A DNA stretch of 43,912 bases, taken from the NCBI GenBank assembly GCA_902783125.1, contig CACZPS010000180.1:1-43912 (forward strand). The letters run 5' to 3'. Of this stretch, positions 1 through 43,912 are shown in pieces. The notes under the pieces were generated by a model. It ran no database searches. It saw only the letters and a list, made by a program, of their open reading frames with translations, and was not told the origin of the DNA. Positions within the stretch are counted from its first letter, which is position 1. Each line of letters starts with the position of its first letter. The position numbers were made by a program, and so were the translations under genes. This DNA comes from an uncultured bacterium (GTDB lineage Bacteria; Cyanobacteriota; Vampirovibrionia; Gastranaerophilales; Gastranaerophilaceae).

Positions 1-1491
1 ATCGCTCAGACTACAGCGTGGAATAAGACCTACTGGCAGCATCAGCGTACAACAACACCTACAACCACATATTCGCTCTATACCTCGGGGGTTAACCTTG
101 TGCGCTCAATATCGACCTCTTACCCGTATGTCGATACTAACTATGCCACACTCGGGGATACACTTAATCTCGTCAACACAAGCTCTAATTATTCCACCAA
201 GTATTTCGGCAGGGCTGCTTACAGCGATACTTATACCGCCTCGGCTTCCCCCGGAACTACCTACGGAACAGTATATCTGCAAGGGAATATGTCGAGCACG
301 TCGTCATACACCGCAACACGCTCTACAATTAACCTCAACGGTAAATCAGGGTTCACAATCAACAGTAACGCAACCCTTGTCTTAGACAAAGTAAGGCTCT
401 ATAACGCCAGTGGTGCAGGGGTCACACTCTCTAACTCGAACGCTAAACTGAATGTCGAGAACTCTTATCTGTCATCTTATATCACGGGTTCAGCGGGGAC
501 TGTCACCTTCACAGGTTTGAACAGAATCGTCGCTAACCTCAGCAATACAAGCTCGAACCTTAAATATATTATCTCGGGCGGCTCTACCTACGTTTCACCG
601 AGTTATATAAAATCATCAATTACAAATAACTCTTATCTATACCTCAACGGCGCAACCGCATTGGGAGGAGCTATATCAGGTTCGGGGACAACCTATGTCA
701 CCGCTAACGGCGCAACCTCAGCTAAGTCTATCAGCCAGGGCGCCTTGAGGGTCAACTCCGGCGGAAAATTGACCACATCCTCAGGCGGGACAATATCCGC
801 TACTATATACAACTACGGGACTATGCAAACAGGCGCATCTGTTTCAGGAAATGTCTACAACTACTCAGGCGGTACATTTACATCAGGTGCAAGTATCTCA
901 GGAGCTTTGACCAACAACTCCGGCGCTACTTTTACCAATAATTCAACTATCACAGGCAGTGTGTCGAACGCAGGGACCTTGTATTCTTCTGCAGGGTATC
1001 TCGCAACCGGTTCATCATCTACTATATCCAACACAGGGAATCTCTATCTGTCGGGAACGCTCGCCAAAGCGATTTCAGGCGCCGGAACTACTTATGTCAA
1101 CAGCAGTTTAGCTATAAACTCGGGCGGGTCAATAGCAGGGACATTGAACCTCTATAACTCGACTCTGACGCTCTCGAGCGGTTCCATAACCTCGTTTGCA
1201 CCTGCGTATCTCACAGGGAGCGGGAACCTCGCAATAGATGTTCAAGGCTCTAATAAAACTGCCGACAGCCTTAACGCTACTTACACAAAATCTGACGGAA
1301 CTATTACCATTAGTTCGATTAACTACCTCTCAGGTATCACTTCCTCAGGCTCGGTCACGGTCTTAGGCGCTAACGTCAGAGCGCGCGGAGCACTCGCGGA
1401 TTCTATAAAGGATAACCCTTATACCTACGGAAACTACGCATTTAATGTAGATTACAGCACATCAACAGGTGCTCTCGTCTACACTCCGGGG
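1..1491 (+). repeat. Unit 0 (head region): Tyr/Thr/Ser-rich start and plain beta-strand repeats
   Basis: The first ~100 residues are unusually rich in Tyr, Thr and Ser. A segment SLYTSGVN at about 73 may be a degenerate linker, but this is weak. From about 310 normal repeats begin (SGFTINSNATLVLDKV), followed by short G/S/T strands such as SGGTISATIYNYGTM. The unit closes with NLAIDV....TAD from 1228, the same closing motif as later units. Codons here favour AAC, CTC, TCG and GGG, unlike the rest of the gene. No signal peptide is visible, so the true N-terminus is upstream. Confidence 0.7.
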
Positions 1492-4400
1492 AGCCTTTAC
1501 ACAGCTATCCATGACACAACCTCAACAAAAACTTATACAATGAAAAGCGACGAAACCGCTCCGACTAACCTCGGCTCGCTCGAGGGTACCTCGCTCACCG
1601 TATATGGCGAAGGGTATGATTATGACGGAAACGGTTATGGCGGGTTAACCGTGCCGTCAGGTAAAACTCTGTCGTTGGATAATATTACTTTCTCAGGGTT
1701 TAAGTCGACTTCGCATGTTACTGCAGCTGTTTTGACTTTATTAGGCGGAACCTCGATTTCTAATTCAACCTTCTCGGGTAATTATACTTATATGACAGCG
1801 TCAGGGGTCGCTAACGGTGCTGTTAGAGTCGCCACGGATTTGTCCGGATATAATATTACAAATTCTTTATTTAGCGGTAACTATGCAAGTTCTGCTACGA
1901 CTTCCGCCAGTACGGAAGGCGGCGCAATTACCTTAGATTCTGCTGCTATCGGGAATATCTCCGCAGATTTTTCTAATAACTATGTTTATACCTCGGCTAA
2001 TCAATCTGCTCTCGGCGGTGCGATTAGAACATATAGTTCTACTGTCGGGAATATCTCAGGCAATTTCTCAGGTAACTTTGCTAAGACGGATTCTACCTCT
2101 CATTCAGCATCCGGCGGGGCGCTTACGTTCAGTTATACAGGTGTCGGAACTATCAGCGGAAGTTTTACGGGGAACTATGCTCAAGGCTATAACGGCGAAG
2201 GCGGTGCGATTTTGTTCTATGCAAATTCGTCATCCCCTAAATCAAGCGGGAATGTTACCGCATCGTTTACCAATAACTATATTATAGGTAACTCTAATGT
2301 GAATTCGTCCTCTTGGGCTACGGGCGGGGCTGTTGTCGTCGGCGGAAAGAACAGTAACTATTATTATACAGTTCCTTTATTCAGCGGTACCTTCTCGGGG
2401 AACTATATTAATATATCTAACGGTACAGCATACGGCGGTGCTTTATACAACCACGGTACCGTTACTAACATAACATCATCATTCACTGGGAACTATGCTA
2501 ATTCTACAAGCGGAACAGGTTACGGTGGTGCTATCTATAACGAAGGAACCATGACTATTACAGATGGGTCGTTCTCTAATAACTGGGCGAAAACAGACGG
2601 CGGCGCTATATATAACACAGGAACGTTAAACATCAAATCCTCCGGCGCTAATGTGTCGTTCTCCGGTAACAGAATCGGAAGCGCCTCAGGGAGCCTCAAC
2701 GATATCTATAACTCCGGAACCTTGAATCTGAGCGCAGCAAGCGGGAAAAGTATAACTTTTAGCGGAAGAGTTAATGATGCGTCCACAAGAACAGGGACTA
2801 CTACATTTACAGGTCCGGGGACTTTGAATCTCTCGTCGAATTATTATTTCTATCAGAAACAACTCAACATAGCTAGCGGTACTGTTAACGCTTACGCAAC
2901 TTATTTGTCTCCGACTAACACGATTGCTAACGCAGGTACATTACAATTGTCCGGCGGAACACTGTCCAAAAATATCGGGGCTTACAATTCTACCTACGGT
3001 ACAACAATCCTTACAGGAAATATCGGAATCTCATCAGGGGTTAGTATTGATAATACTTTTAATTTTAATAACAAAACCCTCACTCTCTCATCCGGCGGAA
3101 CAATTTCTTCGCATACCTTTAGAACAATAACGGGAAGCGGGAATATCGCGATTGATGTCTATACCTCATCTTCTCAGTCGACAACAGCCGATTTCTTCAA
3201 CGCTAACAGCGTTTCAAGCGTCGGTACGATTACCATAAGTTCTATCAATTGGACAGGCTCGGCTATAAATAACTCAAACAGAACAGTTCAAGTGCTCGGA
3301 AATAACCTCAAAAATTATGGCGCTCTTTCCTCAAGCGCTTCATCTTATACAAGCGGATATTATAAGTACAAAGTTTCTCTCCAAGACGGGTATTTGAAAT
3401 TCCAAAACGCAGATTTGTACACAGCTATCGTCGATAACGCAGCTTCAAGAACTTATAATATCACTTCTGCAGAGGCTCTGCCTGCCGCTCCTACTATGGG
3501 TGGAACAACGCTTACCGTAAACGGCGGGAATTATACCGTCGCAGGAAATTATACAACCTCAATCTCAAGCGGGCAAACAATGAACCTTAACAGTGTCGCA
3601 TCGTGGGCAGGCGGGTTCGCTAACAAAGGAACTTTGAATCTTACTCCGGGAACTTCTAATACAGTCATCTCCGGAAATATATCTGATTATTCGGGAAGTA
3701 CCGTAGTTAACCCTAACGGAGTTTATTATGTGTATTTCGCAGGTAGCGTCGAAAATGATTTGACTATCAACGATAACGCTATTGCCGAAATCGCTCCGGC
3801 TAACCTCAAAAACCTTAATACTAACAGCGGTACCTTGATGTTAGTCCAAAGTTCGGCACTCGCCTCAGATATCTCAGGCTCAGGTACCACTATCTTCTCC
3901 GTCTCAGGAATTTCCTCCGATAAAAATATTGACCAAAATGTTATTCAGGTCAATAACGGCGCTAATGTTACCAATACCGGTACAATTACCGTTAATTCCA
4001 CTCTTGATAACAGCGGAACTATCAATAACCAAGGAACTTTGACCGTCAATGGCGCTAATAATTTAGGCTTGATAACCGATGCGGATTCGCCTAAAGGGAA
4101 ATTGGTTACGAATGCCGGCTCCGGCGCTACTATCGTCGTCAACAAGACTGTTACCCAAAAAGATGTCGTTCATCAATCAGGAACACTCGATATTAACGCT
4201 AAATTGACCGCATCTGGAACTATCTCTAACAGCGCCATTATTCAAGGTGATGCGTCTAATATCGCAGGCGCTGTTTCTAACAGCGGGTCGTTGTATCTCG
4301 AAGGCGGTTCAGTCCAAAATAATATCACAGGCGCTTCCGGTACTACTTATATCGGCACTGCATCATCTAAAGCAGAAGTTACTAATAGTAGTACTATTTC

Positions 4401-7400
4401 TCAAAAACAATTGAATATCTTAAAATCAGACAGCAAATTGACTAACACAGGTAATGTCGTCGTCAATGGATTGAATAACTCCGGCTCTATCGCTAATAAC
4501 GGTAATTTTGTCGTCTTAAGCGGAAATACCCAAATTAATTCCGGAGCTATCTCGGGTAACGGTTCTCTACACGTCGGCTATCATGATACTACCTATGGTT
4601 CGACTACTTCTGCTGTTTTAAACATTAATAAAAATGTCACCCAAAATAATATTTATGTCGAAAATTCGGGAAGTAATTTGACCTTCGATGCTGATAACGT
4701 TGCGTTGACTAACGGTATTCAGAATGCCGGTTCTGTCTATGTCACCGGCGGAACACTCGGGTTTGATATCGGTAATTACGGCTCTGCTGTCGGAAATACT
4801 TATTTTAACGGTAATACTATCGTTAACGGTAATGTTTCAGGTAATAATGTGTATCTTATGAGTGGAACTACTACTCTGAATAATGGTACGTTCTATGAAA
4901 TCAACGGATTGGTAGCAAATGGTGGCGCTCTGTCTACCGTTAATAATGTTGTAGCTGATATTTCGTTAGGTAATACAACATTGACTCAATCGTTAAATTG
5001 GGGATTGGATATCAGCGGGTCGCTCTACGATGCAGATACGTTAAGTTCTTCTAATAATTTATCCGGCAGTAACTCTATTAATATCAATGCTCTTAATTTT
5101 GTCGACCCGATTACTAAAAAAGGAAGTATTCAAATCCTTAATGATAATCTTAAATCGGTTGGTAAATTAGCCGATACAGTCAGCGGTTTGACTAAAGACG
5201 GTTCAACTTATTATTATTCAAGAGGTGAATATATCAGATATATTGTTGAATACGATAGTTCAACCGGTAGTCTTGTGTTCGATTGGGATCCGTCATTAAA
5301 CGGACTTTATTCTGCTATTAAAGATACTTTGACTGCTAAAACTTATGATATGTCAAGGGATGAGTATATGCCTACTGATGTCGGTGGTATGGGCGGTACT
5401 ACAATGGTTATCAACGGTAACGGTTATCTTATCGGTGGAAATAATAATAACGGGATTACGTTAAATAGCGGTTCATCAGGTTCTTTGACTATTAATGATG
5501 CTACTATAAGCGGGTTTAACGGAGGAGATGGGTTCTTATATGTGGCAGCAGGAACTGCATATATTAATAATTCTACTATTGAAAATAACACAGAAACCCA
5601 ATATGGCGGTGGTGCTATGCAAGTTGATGGTACTGCTTATATTACTGATACAAGTTTTAAAAATAATACGACTACTGCTGAGCGTGGCGGGGCATTGATA
5701 TTGGCAGGTTCCACTCCAATTGTAAATATTACCGCTGACAGTAAAAATGTCGAATTTACTGGTAACAAAGCTAATGGTGTTGCTGATGATATTTATATTA
5801 AAAATGAATTAGGTAAACTTAACCTCACTGTTAATGATAACAGAAGTATTACATTCGACGGCAGAATCGGCGATAGAGGTGTCGTGACTTCAACCGGCGC
5901 AGGGGAGATTATCTTTAATGATGTTTTACAAGTCACAAGTTTGACTAACAGTTCGAATATCTATATTTCTCCAGTAAATTTACAAGTCGCTAACGCTGTC
6001 ACTAACTCGGGGAATATCTATTTTAATGATTCAACGGTGCTTGGTTCTGATATCTCAGGAACAGGTAAGGTTTGGTTCGATAATGGAGGCTCATCTTCAA
6101 AAACAATTTCTCAAAATGAAGTAGATATCGCATCAGGTATGACAGTTACTAACACCGGTACAATTACTGCTAAGTTGACAAACACCGGAACAATTGCGAA
6201 CTCCGGTATGGTTAATATCACAGGCGGAACTAATAACGTTACTATTACAAAAGTTTCAGGTTCTTCAACAGGGACTGTAAAGGTTGAAAGCGGTAAGACA
6301 GTTGATAATAAAGCTGAAATTACAACCTTTAATTTCAATAACGCAGGAACTGTTACAAATAACGCTGTAATCACTGCAACTACAGGTATTACAAACTCAG
6401 GTACTTTGACAACGTCCGCTAACCTTGCAGGACCTATTACAAACTCAGGTACTTTGTCCGTTGATTCCGCAGGTTATATCCAAGGTAATGTTACAAATAC
6501 AAATGGTATCGTAAATATCGCTAACGGCGGGAACCTTGATTACGGTATTACAAGCGGTACGGTTAACCTCAATAGCGGTGAAGTGTTTATGTCTGCAAGC
6601 AGATTCTCTGATGTCACGCTTAATGCAAACGGCGGTAGTTTGAATACTCAAGATAATATCGCGCTTAATTCATACTCTTTGGGCGCTTTGAATTTGGTTA
6701 ACAACTTGTCATTGAAAATTGATGTCGATGCTTTAAACTTGAATGCTGATAAGTTCGTCGGTACTTCTTCCGCATCAGGCTCAGGTGTCATTCAGTTGGC
6801 TATCAATCTTTATACAACAGGCTCATCCGGTAAAATCGCTAATGTGTTCGATTCTAATCTGAAAAATAAAGTTTCTTTTGAGTCTTATGAAGCTGCTATT
6901 GATAATTTCAGATATAGCGTTTCTTATGATTCAGCTGACGGTTCTATTAATATTGATAATGCAAATCTATATTCTGCAGTCCATGACAATCGAGCAGATG
7001 ACAGAAGTTATACAATTAGAAATGATAACCTAGGCGAAGGTGTTTATGGCGAAGCTGTTAATGTTGATCTCGGCTCTCAAGAAGGCGGAAATCTGACAAT
7101 TGAAGGTGAAGGCAGAACTATTGACGGGAACAGTTATAATGGTATTACTATCTCAGGAAAAACATTAACCTTGAATAACGCAATTATAACAGGATTTGTC
7201 GGGGGACAAGGCGCGTTAAAAAACAATGCAGGAACCTTGAATATTAACAATGTTAACTTTGTTTCTAATACAGAAAATTCTGACGTCGGGGGTGGTGCAT
7301 TTACATCAACAGGCGGTACAGCAAATGTTGTTGATTCAAACTTTGCTAATAACTCAACACTTGCGTCAAATGGCGGAGCTATTTATGTGGGTGCTGACGG

Positions 7401-10400
7401 TATTGTTAACATAACTGCTCAGAACAGCAATGTTACATTCTCCGGTAACATAGCCAATAATGTTTCAGATGATGTTTATCTTGCAGTTTCTTCTTCAAGC
7501 CTCAACCTTGATTCGCAAACAGATAGAACAATTACATTTGGCGGTCGTGTGACGGGTGACGGTTCTGTAACTTCTCAAGGTGCAGGTGCTATATACTTTA
7601 ACGATGATTTGCAAGTCGCAAACCTTACCAACAGCGGTAATATCTACATTTCTCCTGTTGATTTGATGGTTGCAAATGATGTATCAAATAGCGGAAGTAT
7701 TTATTTGACAGATTCATCTGTCCTTGGGTCAGATATTTCAGGCTCAGGTAATATTTATTTCCAAGACAGTGCTTCAACAAGTAAGACAATCACTCAAAAT
7801 GAGGTTGATATTGCATCAGGTAAAACTGTAATAAACACAGGTACAATAACCGCAAAATTAACAAACTCAGGTATTATTGAAAATACGGGAACTTTGAATA
7901 TCAATGGCGGCACTAATAACGTTACGGTTTCCGGTTCAACTTCTGCAGGTGTTGCTAATTTCTCTAATACTGTTATAAATAATGCTTCGATTACACAGCA
8001 ACGAATTACAAATACAGGTGCTCTTACAAATTCCGCTAATATGACATCGCCGGTGATATATAATACAGGTGTTTTTACAAATAATTCAGGTGTTTTAACA
8101 GGTACTATATATTCATCAGGGACTTTATCATCTCATCTCCAATATTTAAAAGGTGATATACATAACTCGGGTACATTGAATGTGTTGGGTGGTACAACGC
8201 AAGGCACAATAGGTAATTACTCAGGTGCTGCGGGTAATCTAAATATTATGGGTGATGTTACGCTTGCACATTCAATTAACAATCAAAATGTAGCATTATC
8301 GTCTGGTAAAACGCTTACATTTAATAAAGAGAGTATGCTGGATTTAGTAAGTTTTACCGCAGGTAGTGATAGTGCGTTTAATACCCAAAACGGTCAGATT
8401 GATAATAAAGCTCAGGGCAGTGCAGGATATATTTCACTCGGTTCGGTTACGATGACTGGTGATATGGCTTGGAATACCGATGTTCAATTATCAACCCATT
8501 CTGCTGATTTCATTAGTGGTTCATTGTCAGGCGGAAATGGTAAAATTGTTATAGAGAATATTCTTCTTTGGGATGATTCAGGTTCTGACGCGACAGATGC
8601 ACTGCCATTTACGGGTGATAAAAGAATTCAAATCGCTTTAGGCACTATTAGCAGTGCTATTAAGTTATTCGATGAAAGATATAAGGTTTCGAGTGTTGAT
8701 CATCCTGAATTAGAATATATTGCTGAATATGTATATGAAGGTACCGGTGCTGAGCAAAAAGGATATTTGGATTTCCACTATGGGAATTTATATACGGCAA
8801 TCCATAATAGTGCAGTTTCTCGTGCTTACAACATGAATTATGTCGGTGATGAAGTCGTAAATCGTGACCTTGGATCTATGGAAGGCACAAACGCAACCCT
8901 GACTGTTAACGGTTATAACTATAATGTCAACGGTAATGGTCATTCAGGTGTAACTATCGGTTCAGGTAACACTATGATTGTCAACAATGTTGGTGATGTG
9001 AATAAATCAGGTTCAACCGATGAGGAAAAATATTCAAACAACGGCTGGTACGGATTTGTTGGACAAAGTGTGATAAATCAAGGCGCATTTACCTTGTCTA
9101 ATTCTGTTGTTAGTAATAATTCTCAGTCTGATGCGGGTACCTTTGTTAACTATGGAACAATGACTATAAATGATTCAGTGTTCTATTCTAATAAGTCAAC
9201 TAATACTGCGGCAGGCGGTTATGGTTATGCAGGTGCAATATTTAATGAAAGTGGCGGAAATTTAGCAGTTATTAATACTAAGTTTATTAGTAATGAAGCT
9301 AAGTATGGCGGAGGCTTGTTAATTGTTAGTGATACTAATACGATTGTTTCTATTTCAGATTCTGAATTTAGTAATAATAAGGCTACCGGTTCTGATATGG
9401 GATTTGGTGGGGCTATTGAAATAGAAGGAACTCCAAGTACAACACCAATTACTATTACAAATACTAAATTTACATCAAACTCTGCAGTAACCTATGGTGG
9501 TGCTATTAAGAATTCAGGGAATTTGAGTGTTTCAGATTCTACATTTACTTCTAACATAGCAGGAACTGTTGGCGGTGCAATCCATAATTCAGGCACTTTG
9601 ACAGTTACTGATTCAAACTTTACAAATAACACTGCGGGAACAGCAGACGGTGGCGCCGCTATATATAATACCGGTACAACAACCGTTATTGCAAATAATG
9701 AAGATGTGTTATTCTCTGGGAACAAGGCTAATAATGTTGCAAATGATATTTATAACTCTGCAACTTTGAACTTAAATGCAAAATCAGGTAAATCCATTAC
9801 CTTCAACGGTTCTGTTACTGATTCGGAAAATAGTGCAGGTGTTATAAATGTTAACGTTGGAGATTACACAGGTGTTGTAAACTTTAATAACAAGGTTTCT
9901 CAAAGCCAAATGAATATTAATGCAGGGACAGTAAGCATTCAAGCCGGTAATCTTGATATCACAAACGGGATTGTGAATAAAGGGATTTTACGTCTTGATA
10001 CAGGTACATTAGTTTCTAAAAATACTATTTCATCAATAGGTGTAATAAATATTGTCAATAATGCAACTGTTGATTCTTATGCTAATATTTCTCAAAGTGA
10101 GTTGAATATTAATACCGGTGCAACATTTATTTCCAATGCTTATATAAATGCTCCTGTTATAAATGCGGGTTCATTTGATAATAATGCAATGCTAAACGGT
10201 ACGTTAACGAACTTGAATATCGCTGCATCATCTGCGAATAATCTGGTCGGTAATGTGGGAAATACAGGAGTATTAACTATTGAAGGCGGCGAGTTGTCTT
10301 ATATTATTGCGAAAGAAACAACAGGTAATGCTTTTGATTTGGGTACGACTGTAGTTTCTGCCGATACAGTTGTTAAAAATAATGGTTCCATTTATCAAAA

Positions 10401-13400
10401 GAATTTAACTATTAATGATGGTGTAACACTGTCTAATGATAGTATCATTTCGGTTGGTTCGGTTTTATCTAATGACGGTACGTCACTCGTAAATAACGGA
10501 ACATTGAACTTGTATGGAACAACTAACACAGGCAAAATTACGGGAACAGGAACAACAAATATTCAATCCGGTGCTGTTGTAACTAATAGTTCGACAATCA
10601 ATCAATCTAATTTGAATAACGCAGGAACATTTAATACTAATATTTCTGATATTACAGCAACAAGCGGAATCCATAATAGTGGTGTATTAAATATTACAGG
10701 TGGTACTACTCAAAATGCGATTACCGATTTTAACAATGTTGCGGGTACTATGAATGTTAATTCTGATGTAAATATAAATCATTCTGTGTCTAACCAAAAT
10801 GTTGTGTTGGCAAACGGTACTGTTACTCAATTGATGAATGGTGGGGTTTTAGATTTGTCAAGTGTGACTTCAAACGGTGCAATATTAAATACTCAAAATT
10901 CACAAATTGATAATACAAACATAAAATTAGGGGATGTGAATCTTACAGAAGATTTAACTTGGAAGATTGATGTTGATTTGGCTTATTCAGAGCCTCGACA
11001 TGCGTCTGATTTGATTCAAGGTTCGTTATCAGACGGTTCTGCAAAAATTACAATTGACAGTATAATTCTTTTACATGATTTGGGGAACTCTGAGGCGGAT
11101 GTATTACCGTTTACAGGTGATAACAGAATTCAAATTGCTTCAGGTTCAATTAGCAGTGCAATTCAGCTAAGTACTGCAAAATTTTTGCTTGCAAGCACTT
11201 CAAGAAGTGATTTGAATTATTTTGTTGAATATAATTTTGAAGGTTTGGGTTCAGAACAGAATGGGTATTTAGATTTCCATTACGGTGATTTATACACGGC
11301 TGTTCACAACTCTGCTCAAGTAAGAGATTATGATTTCGCATATAGCGGTAATGAAATTTTAACAAGAAATTTAAATACTTCATCAGGCGTCGGAATGGAA
11401 GGAACGGATGCAACCTTGACAATAAAGGGTGCAAATAAATCATTGGTTGGTAATGGTTATTCAGGATTCTATATTACAGGCAGTAATACATTGATTGTTG
11501 AAAATATCGGTAAATATAACACTACTACCAGTGTGGTTGAAGAATCTTGGTCCGGTACGCCTTGGGCGTTCAGGTTTAGGACTGATTCTCAAAATAATAA
11601 AATTTCAAATTCCGTATTCGCCAATAATATGATGGATAAAAATGGTGATAATAATATCAGAGGCTTTATTTCTTTATTAACTAGTGGGAATACTGCATCA
11701 AAATTATCTATTGAAAATTCATATTTTATTGATAATACATCAGATAATTTAGTATTATTATATACCGAAGGTAATTATTCCTTGTTGTCACTAAATAATG
11801 TGGTATTTAAAAATAATAATATGGGATCTGCACTGATAATTCACAGTGAAGGAGTTCTTAACATTATTAACTCAATCTTTGATGATAATTTGAGCACTAC
11901 TAATTTAATAAAAGTTAGAGGTTCAAGTAGTGAAAATATTATATCAAATTCTCATATTATTAATAATGATAATGCGTCAGTTAGCGGTAATTCATTAATT
12001 GAAGTTGATGGATCTTCAAAACTGACACTAAATAATGTCGAAATTAAAAATAATACATCAAAAGGTGCTGGTATAGTCAGACTGAATGGTGGTGCGGGTT
12101 CAGAATTAGCAATAGTAAATTCAATATTTGAAGGAAATATCTCTAATGGTGCTGGCGGCGCTATTGAGTATGATAATCAAAACCACATAGTTCATATTTC
12201 AGGTTCAACCTTTAAAAATAATGAATCTAGAGGTTCTTATGATGGTGCAATACATATGAACGGTTCAGCATCTGAATTGTATGTTTCAGATTCAAATTTT
12301 GAGGGTAACAAAATATTAAATGGTAATGGTGGCGCTGTTTCAACGCTTGGGACATCAGTTTTTGACGGTACAAATTTTACCTCAAATTCTTCAAAGCAGG
12401 GTGGGTCATTATATATTGAAGGGACTTCAACAGTTTCAGATTCCATATTTACATCGAATACTGCAACCGGTGGCGGTGGTGCTGTTTTTGTAGCTAATGG
12501 TTCAGTATCATTTGTTGAGTCTGATTTTGTATCAAATCAGGGTTCATTAGGTGGCGCAATATATAACAAGGCTAATGTTACTGTTACAGATACTGATTTT
12601 ACAGATAATATTGCATCTTCAAGAGGCGGTGCTATATATAATACTTCAATTTTTACTGTTATTGCGAATGCGGATAATGTATCATTCTCAGGGAACAAGG
12701 CTGGTAATTTATTAAATGATATTTATAATGAAAACACATTATATTTAAAATCCGGCGGTGATTATTCATCTGATAATTATAAATCTATAACATTTGGTGG
12801 AACAATTACTGATAGTGCAACGCCTAAAGGAACATTGATAATTGGGAATGTTGACGAGGAAGTTGGCTATAATGGTATTATAAACTTTAATAATACTCTG
12901 ACTCAATCAAGAATGAATATTAATTCCGGTAAGGTCAATATAGCAGCTTCTGATTTAAAGATTACAAATGATATTGAGAATGTATCATTGTTACGATTGA
13001 CATCAGGTTCAAGCAATATTTCAGTGTTGACATCCTCAGTTTCAGGTCAAGGCGGAACGGTTCAGTTTGATGCAGGTGCTGATAAAACTATTGAGGTTAA
13101 TAGTATAATCTCAGGGAACTCGGTTAATATCCACTCAGGTACATTGCATTTGAATAATGGTTCATTCTTGTCTATTGCGGGAACAACTGTTGATAATAAC
13201 AGCAGGTTAGATGTTCAAAACGGTAGGGTTACTGAAATAAATCTCGGCAGTGTTGTTCTTAATTCAGATTTAAAACTTTCAATAGATGCCGATTTAACCC
13301 AAACTTCAGGGGTAACGCCTATTACTGAAGACGGAACTGTTCATTATATACTTGATAAAGGTGTGGATAGTTTTGCAGCATCTGATTTAGTTAATAGTGA

Positions 13401-31400: not shown

Positions 31401-34400
31401 TTCAGATATCGTTGTCAGCGGGAGTACAGAATTTAACAGTGATGTTATCAATAATGCAAATGCGACATTAACTACGCAAAGTAGTGTTAATGCATTGAAT
31501 TCAGCAAACTTTAATTCAAAGTTGATAAATAGCGGTACAGTTTCTTTGAATAATTTATCAGATACAGTTTCAAATCTTGAAAATAGTGGAGTTGTTACTA
31601 CAACAAAAGAAACGATATTTAATATCGTTTCGAACAATGCCGGTTCAATTACTTCTAATGGTACAACAAAATACGGAACAGTTGCGAATGCCGGCACTAT
31701 AAACTTAAATGGTATTGATTGCTTAACTGGTACAGTGTCAGGTAATGGTATATTGAATATCAATGGTAATACAATCCTTTCAAATATAATCATTACAGAT
31801 GACTACAATAATCAAATTATTAATATCAATACAGAGGGTATTGCAGATGTTATTGAATCGGGTGTTCTAACTTTAAATATGAATGATACTTGGATTGGAG
31901 ATGTAGTTCTTGAGTCAGGTACTATTAATTATTATGGGTTAAAAGATAATGCAGAAAATGGTAAATTAACAACTACTATCGGGAATTTGAACATTAATGC
32001 AGGAGTATTGACTGTCGCTAGTGGTAGTAATGTTCATTCTGATGTCGTTATAAAGATTGAAGGAGGTTCAACCTTGGCTATAACGGGTGGTTCTGTTGAT
32101 ATTAATTCTGTTGATTCGTGGAATGGGAAGATAACAATGTCTAATGGACGGTTAACTTATAATGATTTAGTTAATAATGGTGTTTTACAGGCGTCAGGCG
32201 GTGTGTTGAATGTCCAATCCGGTAAATTGAACATTATTGATAACAGTAATATCGATAAATCTGTTAGTATGACTATCTTAAATGGGGCAAATGTTGATAT
32301 TTCAGGTGGCAGAGTATCATTAGATAAAAATGATGTGTTAAATGGAAATATTATAGCAACCGCAGGTATTTTGGATATTGAAAACAGAAATTCAACTGAT
32401 TCTGTGGTTATTGATACAAATAAGCTTAATATTTCAGATGCAGTAAATGTAAATATTGAAAATACGTCATTTAGTATGTTGGATAATGAAATAAAAGTTT
32501 TCAATGTCGGAATCGCTAATGTTAAGGATAATTTATCAACAGTTGCATTAGAAATAAATTCCGAATATACAAATATTGATTCTGTTAAATCTGCATCAGG
32601 TGCCGTTGGTATATTGACAATAACTGAATTAAGTGGATATGACGGGTTTAATAATGTAATTGATATATCAGCTCTCGAAGCTAATACTCATGAATTAACA
32701 GTTCTTGAAAGAGCTGATAATACAGCCGATTTTAGTTTGGTGCTTGGTGATACTTTTGTAAACGGTGTGCAAACTGTTGAAAACTACCGTGATGACAGTA
32801 TGTTGCAGTATATTCTTACAGATAAAAATTATATCGGAACTTATGGTGTCAGACTTATCAATTCTGATGAAAATAAGTATCAAAAATTACAAATAGGTAT
32901 TTTAGATAAAGAAGATACTTTACGTGCGGTAAATATGTTTGATTCTTATAATGTACCATCTGAATATGCAGGTTATACAAGAGTCTTTAATGTTACAGTT
33001 CCAGAATTAGAAGAAAATGTTGATTTGGGTATAACAGGATCCGGCAGTTTTACTGTTAAAGGTCAAACATCTATTGCATCTGAGAGTGTAATTGATATGA
33101 ATTTGCATTCGGGTTTTGATGTTGAAAATGACAATACTGTGTTGCTTTTGAATAATCTGACAGTTAAAAATGCTTCAACTGCTATTACTGTTAATAATGA
33201 CAATAATTCAAGTGTTACATTAAGTAATGTTGTTTTGGATAATAATGATATTGCTGTTAAAAATATAAACGGAACTCTAAACTTATCAAACGGTACTGTG
33301 ATAATGTCTGGTGAGGCAATAACTAACAAAGTCGTTAATAGTAGCGACATTAATATTACTAACTCAAGAGTTAAATCATTAATTGAAAATGACGGAAATA
33401 TATATTTATATGGAGTATCAAGTATTGCGAATACTCAAAATACAGGCAATCTTCAGTTGAACGGGAACTCAGAAATTATTGGAGATATATCAGGTAATGG
33501 TGAATTAATTAGTAATGGGACTACAACAATAAGTGGTGCAGTTCTTGGAGAGCAGATTGTAAAAATATCAGATGGTTCAAGAGTAATTTTAAATGGTGAA
33601 TTATCATTAGATAATGATGATAGTTGGCGTGGTACAATTGCTATGTACAGCGGGTCTAAATTAAATGTGAGTGCGTTGAGCTCAAATGGTATTATCCTTG
33701 GTGGGCGTGGTTACTTAAATATTGAATCAGGTAAATTTGATATTATAAATGGAAGTTATATCAATGGAGATTTATCTGTTAATCTTAGCGACAGTGCAGT
33801 AATTAATATTGAATCAAGTAACGAAGATATTAATAATGTATTTAATTATAATGATGTTTTAAATGGCAAAATAAATGTTTTAGGTGGAGCTGTTAATTTT
33901 GACAGAGTTGCATTTGATGGTGAAAGACCATACATTATAAATGCTGTTAGCGGAAATATTAATGTTAAAAATACAGAATTTATTCCTACTTCAACAAGTG
34001 TGTTGACTTTAACAGAAGGTAGTCTGATTTCTGCTAATACAAGAGTTACTATTGATAATAAATCTGAAATTTTGGTTAAAGGCGGAGATTTATATATTAA
34101 TTCTGATGATGTGATTAGTGGATTTATTAAAGCAACAAAAGGTGAGCATAATAATAGTAATATAGTATTTGATAACTTTATTGTAAATAGAAATAATTAT
34201 ATTATTGATGCTGCAGATTTAAATAATGTAAATACAAAGCTGATTTCATCAACAATTGATTTAATGGAATCAGGTTCAAGTATTGATTATACAAATAAGT
34301 ATATGGGTAATGTCACAATTAGTGATGATAGTGTCGTGTTAATGACAGCGAATCTTAATTTATTTAATGTTGATTCAGAATCATTCGGACAAGGTGATAT

Positions 34401-37400
34401 GATTACAGTGGGGACTTCCTCTGGGAAAGTTATTCTTTCAGATGTAAGTGGAGTTGATAAGGATAATATGATTAATCAAGATATGGTTAAATTCATAATT
34501 ATTAACAATACAGATTCTGATAATAAACTTTCTTTAGAGCTTTCTGACAATGTTAAAGCATATAAAGTGACTTGGACTGTTTCGGATTATTATAAGAACG
34601 GTATGTATGTGTTGGATGAAACATCATATATAGGTGATGCGGGTATTGATGTTCTTGCTGATGATGAAGGAATTAATGTCGGGATAAAAGTTGGAAAATT
34701 AAGACCGGAAGATACACTTAAAGCAGTTAATGTATCGGATTTAACTCCACGATTATTTACTTTTAAATCAATTGATTTAATTACGGAAAGTGCTGATTTA
34801 GGAGAAACAGGCCGAGGAATATTTACAGTTAACGGTAAAACCGATTATGACGATACATCCGTAGTAAGCACTATTGATATGACAGGATATAATGGATTTG
34901 ATGTCGAAAATGCAACAACGTTCACTGCTAATGATATAAGAATAATTAATGCAGATAATGCTGTCACCGTTAATAATCAACATTCATCTGTTGAGTTGAA
35001 TAGAGTAACATTTGAATCTAATAATGTTGGTGTTGATGTTAAATCCGGTAAGGTTATTATTAATGATGTTGATTTTGTTTCAAATAATGATGTGGGTGTT
35101 AAAAGTAACGGCAATACTAATATAGAAATCATTGATTCAATATTTAAATCTAATTCAACGGCTATATTGAATAATGCAGGTGTTATTACGTTAAATAATG
35201 TTGAAATTCTCTATGGAGCTAACAATAATAATCTGGTTAATAACGGAACGATGACTGTTTCTTCATCTGAGATTTATTCAAAGGTTGAAAATAGCGGTAT
35301 TTTGACGACATTAGGTAATGATAATAACATATTCTCGAATATTGATAATAGTGTATCGGGTTCTATGATATTAGGTGCACTTATTGATAGAATTACAACG
35401 CTTACAAATAGTGGAAATATAACTACTGTTAATAATACATATATTGATAATCTTTCTAACATTAATGAAAATGCTTATGTTGTCACAAGAGGAACGACTA
35501 ATGTTGGGGATACTGTAAGTAACGTTCTTGGCGCAACAATTGAAACTCACGGAAATACAAGTTTTTATAATGTAGGGAATTATGGATTGATATCTTTAAA
35601 TGATGTTAATTCAATTGAAGAAATCCATAACTATGGAAATATTGTCGGTAATGGTGAAATTTCAATAGCATATCTATATAATAATGCAGGTATAACATTA
35701 AATGGTACAAGGATTAGTTCGTATCCGGCAGACGTATTGGCGACACCGGTAATTGCAATTGATGAGATAACTAATGAAGGTTCAGAAGCGGAATTGGTTC
35801 TTGATAGTGAAGCAACTATTGTAAGTGGGGATGTTACTAATCTCTTAGGAGCGATTATTCTAAAAGGTACTAATGTGCTTAGTGGTGTTGTAAATAACAG
35901 TGGTACATTTAGTACAACAGATAGTTTATTATTTGCTGTAAATAATAATAAATTTTATGAGATTAGAAACTCTGGAATTATAAGATTAAATGCTGCCAAT
36001 GATGAAGTTGTTTCTTTGACTAATAATAATAAAATATTTACTTCAAATAATACAAAATTCGGTACAGTTACTAACACCGGTATGATTTCAGTTTCAGGTA
36101 ATACCCAATTTAACGGTGATGTAAATAATGATGGAAGTACAAAAGGTATCTTAAGAATTGAAGGAATAGCCGATGTAAATAATGTTAAAGTGTTGAATCA
36201 AAAAATTAATTTATTAGAGGATTCTCTTTTAAATGTATTAGGTAATAATGCAGAATTGTCCTTTACTAAAGATAATGATATTATTTCTGCTTCTGCAAAA
36301 ATTTATGTATCCGGTGGAAATTTAACATTTAATGAATTTGACTTAAAACAGGATAATTTGATTATTGATAGTATATTGCCTCATTATAATGAGGAGGGTG
36401 AATATGCATATGTAAGTAATGTAAACTTAAATTTATTTGGGGCTGTAGTTGATTTGACTAATGGCGTCGGTGTTAATGACAGAATTCAAAGTATGAACCT
36501 TGGTAAACTAAAATCGGTGGATACTAAATATAAATTAAATATTAGTTTAGATGATAAACAAATTGATACTATTTATCTTGCCGAAGGTTCTGAGGGTATA
36601 ATTACACTTTCCGAATTAATAGGTTTGCCTGATAGTGCAGACGATGAAAAGATTAGCAAATCTGAAGCAAAAGAGTATAAAGTATTATATAAGAATTCCG
36701 GTGATGACGTTTCTTTAGAACTTTCTAATGCGTTGGAAGGGTATCAGAGTGTAGTTTCCATTGATTCATTTGAAAATCGTACGGTGAAGGACACTGATTT
36801 TATCGGGATTAAAGGTGTTAAATTAAATGATAATAAAGACGGAATTTTGGTAGGGTTAATATCAAAAGATATCGATACCTTGAGGGCGGTCAATATTTCA
36901 GATGTTAATGAAAGAATATTTTTACATACAGGTAATAACGGAGAAAATCAGGTTTACCAAGTAAAAGTTTCACTTGGTGAAACTGGTATTAACAAATTTA
37001 CGGTAAAAGGTAATTCAAGCAATCCTTCTGATAGAATTATTGATTTTGGAGGTAATTATTCCGGTTTTGTTCTAGATAAGGCGTCAGAGCTTGTTTTACA
37101 AGATATTCAATTTAAAAATGGTAATGGTAGTGTCATAACAATAAATGAAGCTGCATCTAAATTGAATATTAATAATGTGATATTTGATGGTAATAAATCA
37201 GAAAATGGTGGGGTTATAGCAGTTTCAAATGATACTGCAAATATTGATAGTATAAATAATACAATCTTTAAAAATAACCAAGTAACCTTAAATGGTGGTG
37301 CAATATATACCGATGGTAAAATTTCTGAAATTAATAATTCTACATTTGAAAGCAATTCCGCTGACAGAGGTGGTGCTATTTATATATCCGGTTCTGCCGT

Positions 37401-40400
37401 TATTCAAAATATAGGTTACTTAAATAATAACGTTATATTTAGCTTTAATACTGCAAATTCTTCTGGTGGTGCAATTTCAAATGAGTCATCAATTATTAAT
37501 TTAAATGCATCATTTGCTAATAATAGCGCAAGTGGTTCAGATAATGTATACGGCGGCGCTATATATAATAAGGGTACAATTGCTAATTTAAATGGTGAGT
37601 TTGTTAAAAATAGTTTATCTGCTTCTGATGAAGGTTTTGGTGGTGGTATTTATAACTCCGGCGCAATTGGTGAATTGAAGTCTGACTTTAGCGGAAATTA
37701 TATTGTAGCGAATGATGCCCGTGGTGGCGCTATCTATAATGTTGGAGATATAGCAACAATTAGTGGTTCATTTTTAGATAATTACGTTAAAGGCGCTAAT
37801 ATTAAAGGTGGCGCAATTTATACAACTAAATCACTCAATTTAGTTGCTGATGGGATGGAATATGATATCAAAGGTAATTATATTGCAGGATATGATGGTG
37901 CAGCTACTTCTAAGCAGGCAATTTATCTAGATGGTTCTGATTTAACATTAAATATTTCAGGTGTAAATGGTGGTGTATATAATGTTTATGATGATATTTC
38001 AGGAACAAATCCTTATATATTGAATGTCAGCGGCAATGTTAATTTGTATGGCAGACTTGATAATGCAGAAGTTGTATTTAATAATGCAAATGTATCTTTT
38101 GATAAGGATTCGTTTGTTAATAGTATCTCGTTAGAAATTCAGAATGGTATCATTGATTTGAGAGATAATATTGCTGCTCAATATAATCTTAACAAATTTA
38201 AATCTTTTGCAAATGTTAAATACTATATTGATATGAAATTGGATGTAGATGCTGATGGAAATATAATTGCAAAATCAGATTCATTCAATTTAAATTCTTA
38301 TTCCGAAGGTGATGTTACGATATATGGTATCGGCTTAGATATTATGCCTGAGGCAGTTATTAATTTATTAAAAACAGGAAGCTATACTGTTAAAGTTCCT
38401 GTTCTTACTGCTACTCCAGAAAGTACTATTAAACTTGCTGTTTCTGATGATGTAAAAGAAGATTATATTGATTATAATGTTGAAAGTTATGATTATAATG
38501 TTGTTGACTCAAACTTTATAGGTCAAATAGGTGTTAAGGCTTATGATGATGAAAGTATAAATGTTCAAGGGGTTGAGATTGGTGTTATAAATGTTCGTGA
38601 TACATTAGCGGCTTTAAATCAAACTGATTACGAAGATAATGAAAGAACATTTACATATACTTCTGATGATTCATCTTATACTGTATCAGAAGATTTGGGT
38701 GTGACAGGAAAAGGGATTGCTAATATTAACTTAAATTCAAAGATTGTTGATTTCAATGGGTTTGGAGGTTTTGAATTAACAGATAATGCCTCACGAGTAA
38801 ATATAAATTCCGGTATATTACAAAACAGTAAAGCTGTTATTACAGTTAATAATTCCGATGCGGAAGTTAATGTTAAGGACTCTGTATTTGAGAATAATGT
38901 AGTTGCTATTAAAAATGATAACGGCACTGTTAATTTAACAAATGTAAGTATTAAAGCAAGTACAGGTATAAATACTATATCAAATGCAGGTGAAATGAAT
39001 TTTAATACTTCTGATGGTAGTACAAATATAATTAGCTCACATTTCTTGAATAAGGGTACTGTTAATTTATACGGTAATAATGAATTTAAAGCAGGTATTA
39101 CAGGAAGCAGTGATTCCGGTGAAAGTGGTCAAATTAATATCCTTGGTGGTTTAACATCATTTACATCATCTATTGCTAATAATGCGGTTGTTGTTAATGG
39201 CGGCGATATTCAATTTGTGCCGGCAACTTTTGTTGATTCAACACTTAATGCTCAAAATGGCAGAATATCTTTATCGGAAATGGATAAAGGTCAAGATGTA
39301 CAATATAATAACTATGTTTTCAATAAATTAGTGTCTAATGATAATTTTGAATGGGTAATTGATGCAGATATACGGAATGGTTCTGCGGATGTATTTACAC
39401 TTGGCGATGGGTCTTCAGGCACAATTTTTATATCAGATATCAATGGATTTAATAAAGATGATTTAAGATATATGAAAGAAATTAAGATACTTAACAAAGC
39501 GTCTGATAATATAGTTCTTAAATTACCTACAGATGAGGAATGGGTTAATGCGCATACACTGGTGTTAACACTTGGTGAGATTATTGATGGGGTATTAACA
39601 GTAAAAGATACTGATACATTGGGCACAATTACTCTTGGGTTGAGTAGTTCTGCTGATTCATTGGTAGCAAAAAGGATTGTGGATGATAGCAGTCCATTGA
39701 TGAATTTAAATAAAGAGTCATACGAAAACAGACTATTTATCATGGAAAATAAATATGTAGAAACTGATGATTTAGGTGAAACTGCTGCAGGTACGGTTAA
39801 AGTTAATGGTAATAATTTATTACTTGATTTTAATGGACATTCCGGTTTTAACCTTAAAAATAATGGTGAAGATACAAAATTAATTATTAGTAATGCTGAT
39901 ATTGAAAATGCAAAACTTTCTTCTACGGATTCAATGGAGGGAGCTGTAATAAATTCAACAGCGGGCAAATATGGATTTATAGAACTAACGGATACAAATT
40001 TAGTAAATAACACATCAGTTGGGAAAGCCGGTGCAATTTTCACAAATTCTGATTTGACAATTTCAGCCCAAAACAGAGATGTTAAAATTACAGGTAATAC
40101 ATCAGGAAATGGCCATGGTAAAACGGCTATATACATTGATAACTCTGATAGAGAAGTCAGTTTGAATTTATATGGCTTAAATGGTCATACATTAGAAATA
40201 TTTGATGATATTGAATACGAAAAAACCGGTCTAAATGTTACTATCGGTTCTAAAAATGGTGGTACTGTATTGTTAGCAAATACTCTTGGTTCGGCTATAA
40301 ATAAGCAATTAGGTACATTAACCTTGGGTGGCGGTACCTTACGTGTAGCGGATGGTAGTATTAAAAATATTTATACTAACGCTTTATCAATTGTTAATAA

Positions 40401-43400
40401 TACAAATTACGTGTTTGACGTTGATGTGCAAAATTCAACTTCTGATATGTTATTTATAAATCCGTCGTTAAAAAATACTATAAGAGTTGAAGGTTCCGCG
40501 CGATTAGTGCTTGATAAATCCAGCTTTAATATGCTCTCATATTTTACAGGCGATGAATCTGTAAATGGTGATATTCAGGCATCTGTTATCAGACTTGTTA
40601 CTACAAATCGACATTCTACCGAATATTTTGTATTTGATAATAATAATGATAAAGCCGAATATGTGATTATGGATGGTACTACCGAGTTAGGAAGAACATA
40701 TTACTTTACTCTTGGTATAAACGGAACTGTTATAATATCAACACAAAAGCCTGATGATTCACTTCATCCTTTAGTAAAGGCCATTGTTAATCCAAAGAAT
40801 AATACTTATACAATGAATATAAATAATATTTTGTATAATTATGGTAATCTTACTGTTAATAGCAAGCAAAATGAGGTTCAAGCCAAGAAGTTTACTATAA
40901 AAGGTAACAATTATGTGATTGAGTCAAGAGAACAATTAGAAGGCTTGAAGGTGATTTCAGGGAAAACACTTGCTATTTCGAAGGCTACAATGAAAGGATT
41001 TAATTCTGCTATTGTAAATGATGGTGGAACAACAACACTGACAAATGTAAACTTTAATAATAATGAAACAGGTACTAATGTTTATGAACCTGTTGAAGAA
41101 TCTAAAAATGGTGGTGCAATTAATAATATTGCCGGCAATGTTTCTGTAAAAGGCTCTAAGACAAAACCATCGGTATTCAATAATAACAGATCTAACGGAT
41201 TAGGTGGGGCTATATATAATAACGGCACATTATCCTTATCTTATGTGAATCTGGGTATTTCTTCAAATGATATGTTGAATGCTAACATAGCGACTAATGG
41301 TGGAGCTTTAGCTAATACAAATAAAGCAACGATTGCTAATTCAAAATTTATAGAAAATATAGCTGATGATAAAGGCGGTGCTATTTATAATACCTCAGTA
41401 TTAACTTTAAAAACATCGGTAGTACAAGGTAATTTAGCAACATTAGGCGGCGGTATTTATAATGCTTCTGTTGAGCCAAAGAAAACCTTGTCTATAACAA
41501 GTTCTACTTTTAATGCAAATAAAGCAAGAGAAAGTGGTGGAGCAATATATTCAGTATTTAACTTTACGGATAATAATTCTACATACACTGAGAATATTGC
41601 TAACCGTGGTGGGGCTGTTTATATAACTAAATCGATAAATGAATCAGATATTACACCTGTTGTTACAATAACAAAATCAAAATTATATGATAATGAAGCA
41701 TTGTATGATGGTGGTGCAATATATCTAGAGTCAGGGAAATTAACCTTATCAAGTGCAGTTATTGGCGGAAATACACCGTCAGCGTTTGGGAATTATGCAT
41801 TTAATGGTGCCGGCGTTTATAATCTTGATGAGTTGATTTCTAACTCAACTTCATATTCATCTAATGTCGCAGAGAACTTTGGTGGAGCAATATTTAATAG
41901 CGGGAGCTTGTCGTTAAACAAATCAAAAGTAGGAATAACTAATGGTTATGGAAACAAAGCAACTTATGGTGCAGGTCTGTATAATACTGCAAGCGCTGCT
42001 ATATCAGGTTCATCGTTTGCTTATAACATAGCAAGTTTAAGTAATAATGTTGGCGGATTAGGTGGTGCTATTTATAACGCATCTGATGCAATATTGTTGG
42101 ATATTAAATCTAAGTCAACATTCACATCCAATGCTGCGATAAATGGTGGTGCCATTTATAATAATGGCGTAATGTCAACAAATACGGTTACGTTCACTTC
42201 AAACAAAGCAACTGCAGATGGTGGGGCAATTTATAACGCTGCAGAAGCTGATAAAGAAGTATCTGTGATTTCAACAACATTTACATCAAATACTGCTTCG
42301 AATGGCGGCGCTGTTTACAATATTGGTAAGATAACTTCTTCAAAATCAATATTTAACGGTAATTATGCGGAAACAGCAAATGGCGGTGCTATTTATAATG
42401 CCGGTGGTTTTATAACATCAACGGGAGATAAATATACTCGTAATGAATCTAACAGTAAAGGCGGAGCTTTGTATAATGCAAAGGATGCCACTGTTAATTT
42501 AACGTCTGCTACATTTACTTTAAATAAATCAGCATCAAACGGTGGCGCTATATATAATGATGGAGTTATGACAATTAGTAATTCTACATTTGGTAATGCA
42601 AAGAAAACCGGTTTCGCAAATAGTGCATCATCCGGTAATGGTGGCGCAATTTATAATGCAGGGACTGTTCTTGATGTATCAAATTCGACAATTGGATATA
42701 ATAATGCCTATGTTGGTGGTGCGTTGTTCAATAACAATAGTATCAGTAACAACGATAGTGCAACTATTAAGTTGTCCACAATTATTGGAAATTATGCAAC
42801 ATCGATGGGTGGAGCAATTTATAATAATTCTAATTCTGTAATAGATTTAAGTGGAGTAACTGTTACATCTAACACATCTTCAAACAACGGCGGAGCCGTA
42901 TTTAATTCAGGGAAATTAGTGATAAATGCTGATGCTTCAGGTAAAAATATTGTAAAAACAATCTTTAAATCTAATAAAGCAAAAATCGGTGGTGCTATAT
43001 TTACAATTGGTGAAATGAATATATCTGATGCGGAATTCGTTTCAAATATTGCTGAGGGCTCAACCGATTTAAGTTTAGCAGGCGGCGGTGCAATTTCACT
43101 TGGCGGTGAAGTGAATACGATTAATAATACAAAATTCGTATCAAATACATCTCCACATGCCGGTGCATTGTTTGTATATGGTAATGTAAATATAACAAAT
43201 TCAGAATTCGTGTCTAATTCGGCAAAAGGAAGTGCTTATTCAACAGGTAATGGTGGTGCTGTGTTTGCTGACAAATCCGCAAATATTACGATTTCCGATT
43301 CTTCATTTAGCAAGAATTCTGCAACAGGTAATGGTGGTGCTATTTATGCCGCTCAGGGTTCGCACATAAAAATAACAGATACCAGCTTTATGAATAACAC

Positions 43401-43912: not shown

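What the first reader, a model, noticed from the sequence alone, without database searches (positions are those of the whole stretch)
1..43912. A single open frame of more than 14,600 codons fills the window
Frame 1 has no stop from base 1 to the end. Both ends are open, so the gene is longer still, placing it among the largest bacterial genes. If it folds as a continuous beta-helix (about 22 residues and 0.48 nm per turn), this part alone would be roughly 0.3 micrometre long. That is an inferred figure resting on the assumed fold.
Basis: partly seen in the sequence, partly recalled or inferred. Interest (0 to 1): 0.9.

Follow-up and report, generated by a model that had tools for sequence, protein, structure and literature searches.

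The report
Giant modular autotransporter gene, Gastranaerophilales
The whole contig is one stretch of a single, real, enormous gene from an uncultured gut or rumen bacterium; it encodes a 1.5-megadalton surface protein built as a chain of at least 22 copies of a secreted-adhesin unit that its relatives carry only once to a few times.

Summary
In detail: frame +1 has no stop in 14,637 codons, and the window is the entire contig, so both gene ends are missing. It is not an assembly accident: no exact internal repeat reaches 25 bp, and same-genus genomes carry orthologous pieces. A second giant in the same genome (12,289 aa) aligns end to end (42-45% identity) with frames of 12,538 and 12,799 aa in two other species.

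It is not one continuous beta-helix. It is a string of 22 modules, each with an N-cap, a beta-helical stretch and a C-cap. The caps match no Pfam family and recur once to five times in small paralogues that end in a recognised autotransporter barrel. Two modules modelled well (pLDDT 90 and 83) and resemble autotransporter passengers (Ag43, TibA, pertactin, UpaB).

The contig stops in an 87-bp sequence identical to the end of the other giant: an assembler-k break where the paralogues' C-terminal translocator becomes a shared repeat.

Best explanation: the passenger of a giant type V (autotransporter-like) adhesin, about 15,000 aa in full, lengthened by duplication of whole passenger modules. 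The barrel and signal peptide of this gene itself are inferred. New variant of a known kind.

The parts
1..43911 (+). Continuous open frame, 14,637 aa, 1.534 MDa, pI 4.4, one Cys; passenger part of the giant gene; 5' and 3' ends lie outside the contig
1..1461 (+). Module W01 (N-cap aa 47-137, C-cap aa 359-487)
   Evidence: cap HMMs
1462..3399 (+). Module W02 (N-cap 492-568, C-cap 1002-1133)
3400..5232 (+). Module W03
5233..6939 (+). Module W04
6940..8727 (+). Module W05 (N-cap 2316-2400, C-cap 2770-2909); modelled together with the preceding C-cap (aa 2184-2909)
8728..11244 (+). Module W06
11245..13584 (+). Module W07 (a second, weak N-cap hit at aa 3954-4019 is probably spurious)
13585..15603 (+). 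Module W08
15604..17952 (+). Module W09
17953..20523 (+). Module W10
20524..22383 (+). Module W11
22384..24612 (+). Module W12 (C-cap found, N-cap not recognised by the HMM)
24613..25860 (+). Module W13
25861..27990 (+). Module W14
27991..30153 (+). Module W15 (N-cap 9370-9465, C-cap 9919-10051); modelled together with the preceding C-cap (aa 9200-10051)
30154..32808 (+). Module W16
32809..34602 (+). Module W17 (orthologous module in two other species)
34603..36789 (+). Module W18
36790..38526 (+). Module W19 (orthologous module in two other species)
38527..39594 (+). Module W20 (orthologous module in two other species)
39595..40704 (+). Module W21 (orthologous module in two other species, support 0.999)
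40705..43911 (+). Module W22, the last: 1,069 aa, rich in GGA[ILV]/FxxN polymorphic-outer-membrane-protein repeats, running into the cut C-cap (aa 14564-14637) that leads to the translocator
   Evidence: TIGR01376 E 1.4e-17 over aa 12,001-14,637
43826..43912 (+). 87-bp terminus identical to the end of contig C131 (the second giant gene): assembly break at the shared 3' repeat
1..6939 (+). 5' region with raised GC3 (0.50 falling smoothly to 0.30 over W01-W04; ~0.20 afterwards)

Best explanation
The window is the passenger of a giant type V (autotransporter-like) surface protein of a Gastranaerophilales bacterium. The chain is at least 22 tandem passenger modules, each ~350-1,070 aa: N-cap, right-handed beta-helix, C-cap. 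Inferred steps: a signal peptide sends it through Sec; a single C-terminal beta-barrel, just beyond the contig's 3' end, is inserted by the Bam machinery; the passenger is threaded out and folds on the surface as a long chain of beta-helical rods joined at caps, where it acts as an adhesive or self-associating fibre. The C-cap sits where passenger meets barrel in every small paralogue and resembles the autochaperone region in fold. I propose that each internal C-cap nucleates folding of its own module, so a chain this long can be secreted and folded stepwise. Shown: the frame, modules, orthologues, module fold (predicted) and BamA. Inferred: signal peptide and barrel of this gene, surface location, adhesion, stepwise folding.
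For: Real gene: no stop in 14,637 codons. Same-genus relatives carry collinear pieces: G007_C176 39.6% identity over 2,601 columns, G002_C96 40.7% over 1,716, G002_C128 37.6% over 1,109. Substitutions are concentrated at third positions (0.54-0.63 against 0.34-0.35 at second). The second giant aligns end to end with two other species. Modules: N-cap and C-cap HMMs give 22 C-caps and N-caps in 21 of 22 modules, with none in reversed or shuffled sequence. An HMM from small paralogues only, not iterated, still hits 4-5 of the mapped C-caps and nothing else in the window. Length scales at 729 aa per module, r = 0.974. Fold: pLDDT 89.8 and 83.2; best PDB matches include autotransporter passengers: Ag43 Foldseek E 2.8e-5, TibA Z 19.7, pertactin Z 17.6 and Pet including its C-terminal end Z 13.5. 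Translocator: the C-cap is followed by a barrel in the own-genome paralogue C1 (TIGR01414, E 3.6e-10) and in L195 (3.9e-7). Export: BamA present, an OmpH/Skp-like gene immediately upstream of the second giant. One Cys in 14,637 residues, as expected of passengers.
Against: Neither end of this gene is in hand. The only relative of a giant whose contig runs past the junction (G005_C9) shows the barrel in other reading frames, i.e. two apparent frameshifts within ~560 bp of the contig end. That may be consensus error in a collapsed repeat, or a broken gene. PF03797 does not match in this genome; only TIGR01414 does. The caps match no Pfam family, autochaperone families included. The Foldseek match of model W05 is weak (best E 0.015). 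No transcript, peptide or read data.
Confidence: 0.83

Rival explanations
1. Assembly artefact: separate shorter autotransporter genes, or different strains, fused into one frame by misassembly.
For: It is a fragmented MAG, the gene fills a contig with both ends open, and GC drifts from 0.47 to 0.30 along it.
Against: No internal exact repeat of 25 bp or more through which an 87-mer graph could misjoin. Caps alternate in frame throughout. Collinear orthologues in other assemblies, and full-length collinearity of the second giant in three assemblies. The GC3 change is smooth, not a step.
Confidence: 0.04
2. A real giant surface protein, but not a self-contained autotransporter: exported by another route (two-partner secretion, type I) or now missing a functional barrel.
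For: Barrel not seen for this gene; frameshifted barrel next to the orthologue of the second giant in G005. The genome also holds other large secreted-type frames without these caps (C179, C181).
Against: The last C-cap runs into sequence identical to the other giant's terminus, at the point where all paralogues change from passenger to barrel. Pfam found no TPS, haemagglutinin-repeat or RTX domain in any part of the window.
Confidence: 0.12
3. A decaying or non-expressed gene kept open by chance or low mutational input.
For: No expression data; a large cost for a 1.9-Mb genome.
Against: Third-position excess and conserved frame at about 40% protein identity, where unconstrained sequence would have accumulated stops.
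Confidence: 0.02

Closest known systems
Classical (type Va) autotransporter adhesins, e.g. Ag43, TibA, pertactin, UpaB
   Same: Predicted right-handed beta-helical passenger; C-cap at the passenger-barrel junction; barrel in paralogues; models match these structures among the best
   Different: At least 22 passenger modules with internal repeats of both caps, against one passenger; several times longer (Fap2, a large one, is predicted in fragments up to residue 3,786, PMC12397386); caps not recognisable by sequence
Chlamydial polymorphic membrane proteins (Pmp)
   Same: GGA[ILV] and FxxN repeats (PF02415, TIGR01376) in front of an autotransporter barrel in paralogues
   Different: No Pmp middle domain matched; repeats only in part of the modules; different phylum; far longer
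Fap2/RadD-type large adhesins of Fusobacterium
   Same: Large beta-helical rods for adhesion; several large autotransporters per genome
   Different: Fap2 is described as one 47-nm kinked helix of 2,905 residues (PMC12397386), not a chain of capped modules
Giant genes of Omnitrophota, Planctomycetota and Chlorobium
   Same: Very large surface-type frames in small-genome, partly host-associated bacteria
   Different: Those described carry transmembrane helices or adhesion domains and are poorly conserved (PMC10066038); these giants keep length and module order between species

Membership tests
Type Va (classical) autotransporter | N-terminal Sec signal peptide | not testable with these tools
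   5' end outside the contig; hydrophobic N-terminal stretches seen by eye in C131, C127, C128 and in orthologue G002_C128
Type Va (classical) autotransporter | Beta-helical passenger | tested here: met
   Two modules modelled at pLDDT 89.8 and 83.2, matching autotransporter passengers; rests on predicted models
Type Va (classical) autotransporter | Autochaperone region before the barrel | tested here: inconclusive
   C-cap occupies that place and the model end aligns with the C-terminal part of Pet (Z 13.5); no Pfam autochaperone match
Type Va (classical) autotransporter | C-terminal beta-barrel in the same polypeptide | tested here: inconclusive
   Outside the contig; present in own paralogue C1 (TIGR01414 3.6e-10); frameshifted behind the second giant's orthologue in G005
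Type Va (classical) autotransporter | Bam machinery in the genome | tested here: met
   PF01103 E 5.1e-43 at C1:3788-4777
Chlamydial Pmp | GGA[ILV]/FxxN repeats | tested here: met
   PF02415 and TIGR01376 above cut-off; 71 GGA[ILV] and 139 FxxN; not in the first 3,000 aa by profile
Chlamydial Pmp | Pmp middle domain | tested here: not met
   No such match in Pfam scans of the whole window or of paralogue C1
Two-partner secretion exoprotein (type Vb) | TPS domain / haemagglutinin repeats | tested here: inconclusive
   No Pfam match in the window, but the true N-terminus is missing

The most novel reading that the evidence does not exclude
A secreted protein class in which whole autotransporter passengers, each with its own N-cap and autochaperone-like C-cap, are concatenated more than 20-fold in front of one barrel, so that repeated internal folding nuclei ratchet a 1.5-MDa chain across the outer membrane. 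The barrels are kept near-identical among paralogues while the passengers diverge.
Probability: 0.4. Interest if true: 0.82.

Novelty: new variant of a known kind. Interest (0 to 1): 0.66.

Why it matters
A 44-kb stretch of coding sequence in one gene, 2.3% of a 1.9-Mb genome, with a second giant gene in the same genome, is a large investment for a small gut bacterium and suggests a major role in attachment. If the modules really are repeated passengers with repeated folding caps, they give a natural series of 1, 2, 5, 15 and at least 22 units for testing how passenger length and autochaperone number limit type V secretion. The shared 3' repeat also explains why such genes are systematically cut in short-read genomes of this order, so giant frames there are probably under-reported.

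Tried and rejected
The first alignment for the genome-collection scan was too diverse; a four-row alignment worked. A 24-base pattern for the 5' end was mistyped and is void; the repeat with real sequence found no other contig sharing the first 300 bases, so the 5' break is not a shared repeat. Self-BLAST of the whole protein returned nothing usable and was replaced by cap HMMs. Tandem Repeats Finder gave only 37-49 bp arrays: the repeats are visible only at protein level. No solved structure matches by sequence the last 2,637 residues, the only part tried. A simple turn length was not clear from autocorrelation (peaks at 12, 17-18, 25-27), so '22 residues per turn' is not confirmed. PF03797 in the own genome: none. 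Papers on autotransporters in Gastranaerophilales or polymorphic membrane proteins in Melainabacteria: none in the held library.

Full report
OBSERVATION. Frame +1 of the window is open over all 14,637 codons; the other five frames have 504 to 2,295 stops. Base composition alone would give about 1,149 stops. The window is the complete contig C180 of a 1.90-Mb, 181-contig, 87.6%-complete genome, so the gene's start and stop are not in it. The translation has a mass of 1.534 MDa, pI 4.4 and one cysteine.

ARTEFACT? The longest exact direct repeat inside the window is under 25 bp, too short to misjoin or collapse a graph whose contig ends overlap by 87 bp. The frame is supported by other assemblies of the same genus. 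The 3' part aligns with G007_C176 (39.6% over 2,601 columns), G002_C96 (40.7% over 1,716) and G002_C128 (37.6% over 1,109); the G002_C128 match ends at window residue 12,984 and the G002_C96 match begins at 12,993, so the two contigs follow each other. A second giant in the same genome, contig C131, 12,289 aa to the contig end with a hydrophobic N-terminus, aligns over its length with G005_C9 (12,799 aa, 45%) and with G002_C23 (12,538 aa, 42%). Between orthologues, differences at codon positions 1, 2 and 3 are 0.38-0.42, 0.31-0.35 and 0.54-0.63, as expected for a constrained protein.

WHY THE CONTIG STOPS WHERE IT DOES. The last 87 bases of C180 and C131 are identical, and those of C127 and C128 are identical to each other over exactly 87 bases. 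The same holds in five other genomes of the genus, with 55, 87 or 99 bases, always at or just after the point where the passenger of these paralogues changes to the translocator. I read these numbers as assembler k-mer lengths (a related record is named k87_...). The 3' ends of the paralogous genes are therefore near-identical repeats that break short-read assemblies. Beyond the window's last residue, complete relatives continue for roughly 400 aa through a barrel: own-genome paralogue C1 (TIGR01414, E 3.6e-10) and L195, whose junction and barrel share 34% identity with C1 over 461 columns. The full gene should thus be at least about 15,050 aa. In G005_C9 the second giant's orthologue is followed by barrel sequence in other frames near the contig end; I cannot tell consensus error from real damage. 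The 5' end is not a shared repeat.

WHAT IT IS MADE OF. A profile started from the passenger-barrel junction of small paralogues finds that same C-cap 22 times along the window, and a second profile finds an N-cap in all but one module. Neither profile hits reversed or shuffled sequence. A non-iterated profile built without any giant sequence still finds 4-5 of the C-caps and nothing else in the window. The caps match no Pfam family. Protein length rises by 729 aa per module across 22 related proteins, some of them cut by contig ends (r = 0.974). Elsewhere in the order the minimal form is one N-cap, one C-cap and a barrel (~860 aa, L192, L195), with multi-cap forms up to about 3,780 aa.

HISTORY. 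In a tree of caps, every module of the second giant pairs one-to-one and in order with modules of its orthologues in two species (support 0.98-1.0 for nearly all), so this array is old and stable. In the window gene, W17, W19, W20, W21 and W22 have counterparts elsewhere, while W03-W12 group together, which suggests a lineage-specific expansion (a FastTree tree on 219 columns, so details are tentative). The second giant was found at length only within the genus: a family-wide search with its central 3,000 aa gave a long match only in G005 (G002 was not among the genomes listed there).

FOLD. AlphaFold2 models of two cap-to-cap segments, using only window and fetched-locus sequences, reach pLDDT 89.8 (W05) and 83.2 (W15) and are almost all beta. 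W15 matches Ag43 (Foldseek E 2.8e-5) and TibA (Z 19.7, rmsd 3.3 over 255). W05 matches pertactin (Z 17.6, rmsd 3.5 over 339), UpaB (Z 16.3) and the C-terminal part of the Pet passenger (Z 13.5, rmsd 3.9 over 257, model 414-726), which includes the C-cap; its Foldseek E-values are weak (0.015 at best) and other beta-helix proteins score similarly, so the fold class is firm and the family assignment less so. In UpaB the corresponding end is described as resembling the autochaperone region (PMC6488583). The C-cap as an autochaperone is an inference from position and fold.

MECHANISM. Type V export needs Bam; BamA is present, and an OmpH/Skp-like gene lies directly upstream of the second giant and, by sequence, of its G005 orthologue. 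Melainabacteria have a diderm envelope (PMC4040986). The most economical account is an autotransporter whose passenger grew by duplicating whole modules with their caps. Repeated C-caps would let each module nucleate its own folding outside the cell. Adhesion or self-association is inferred from the nearest structures and from the repeats.

COMPARISON. Size alone is not a record: Omnitrophota reach 39,678 aa (PMC10066038). What differs from known autotransporters is the tandem of whole capped passengers; that no such tandem has been described rests on my knowledge and on a small literature search. Contour length: Fap2's 2,905-residue helix is 47 nm (PMC12397386), so the window gives at most about 0.24 micrometre, or about 0.14 counting only the 8,622 inter-cap residues.

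Noticed in passing
window 1-12000: GC3 falls smoothly from 0.54 to about 0.20 over the first ~12 kb of the same gene, with GC skew rising along the window; the orthologue G002_C128 is also more GC-rich in its first half. Cause unknown.
   Followed up: partly
L042-L044 (G000:C131:11706-48573): A second giant frame (12,289 aa, open at its 3' end), 15 modules, with lipoyl synthase, dihydrolipoamide dehydrogenase-like, aconitase-domain and OmpH-like genes upstream.
   Followed up: yes
contig ends of C127/C128, G002_C96/C23, G003_C128/C199, G004_C87/C86, G005_C34/C30, G006_C61/C99: Paralogous autotransporter genes in each genome end at identical termini of 55, 87 or 99 bp: near-identical translocator repeats, suggesting gene conversion or module swapping between divergent passengers.
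   Followed up: partly
L120 (G005:C9), about 560 bp before the contig end: Barrel sequence follows the 12,799-aa frame but in two other frames: assembly error in a repeat, or a broken translocator.
   Followed up: partly
L003 and L004 (G000:C179, C181): Two further large, open-ended secreted-type frames (1,112 and 2,279 aa) without these caps, possibly parts of a different large adhesin.
   Followed up: no
L124:9101-12103 (-) (G005:C7:29101-32103): A 1,000-aa protein starting MAKKVFAFDLGKASIGYCVREG, looking like a type II CRISPR Cas9, with a probable Cas1 next to it; identified by eye only.
   Followed up: no
G068:C7: Another genome of the family has a 6,075-aa open frame matching the second giant weakly: large frames may be more widespread in the family.
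   Followed up: no
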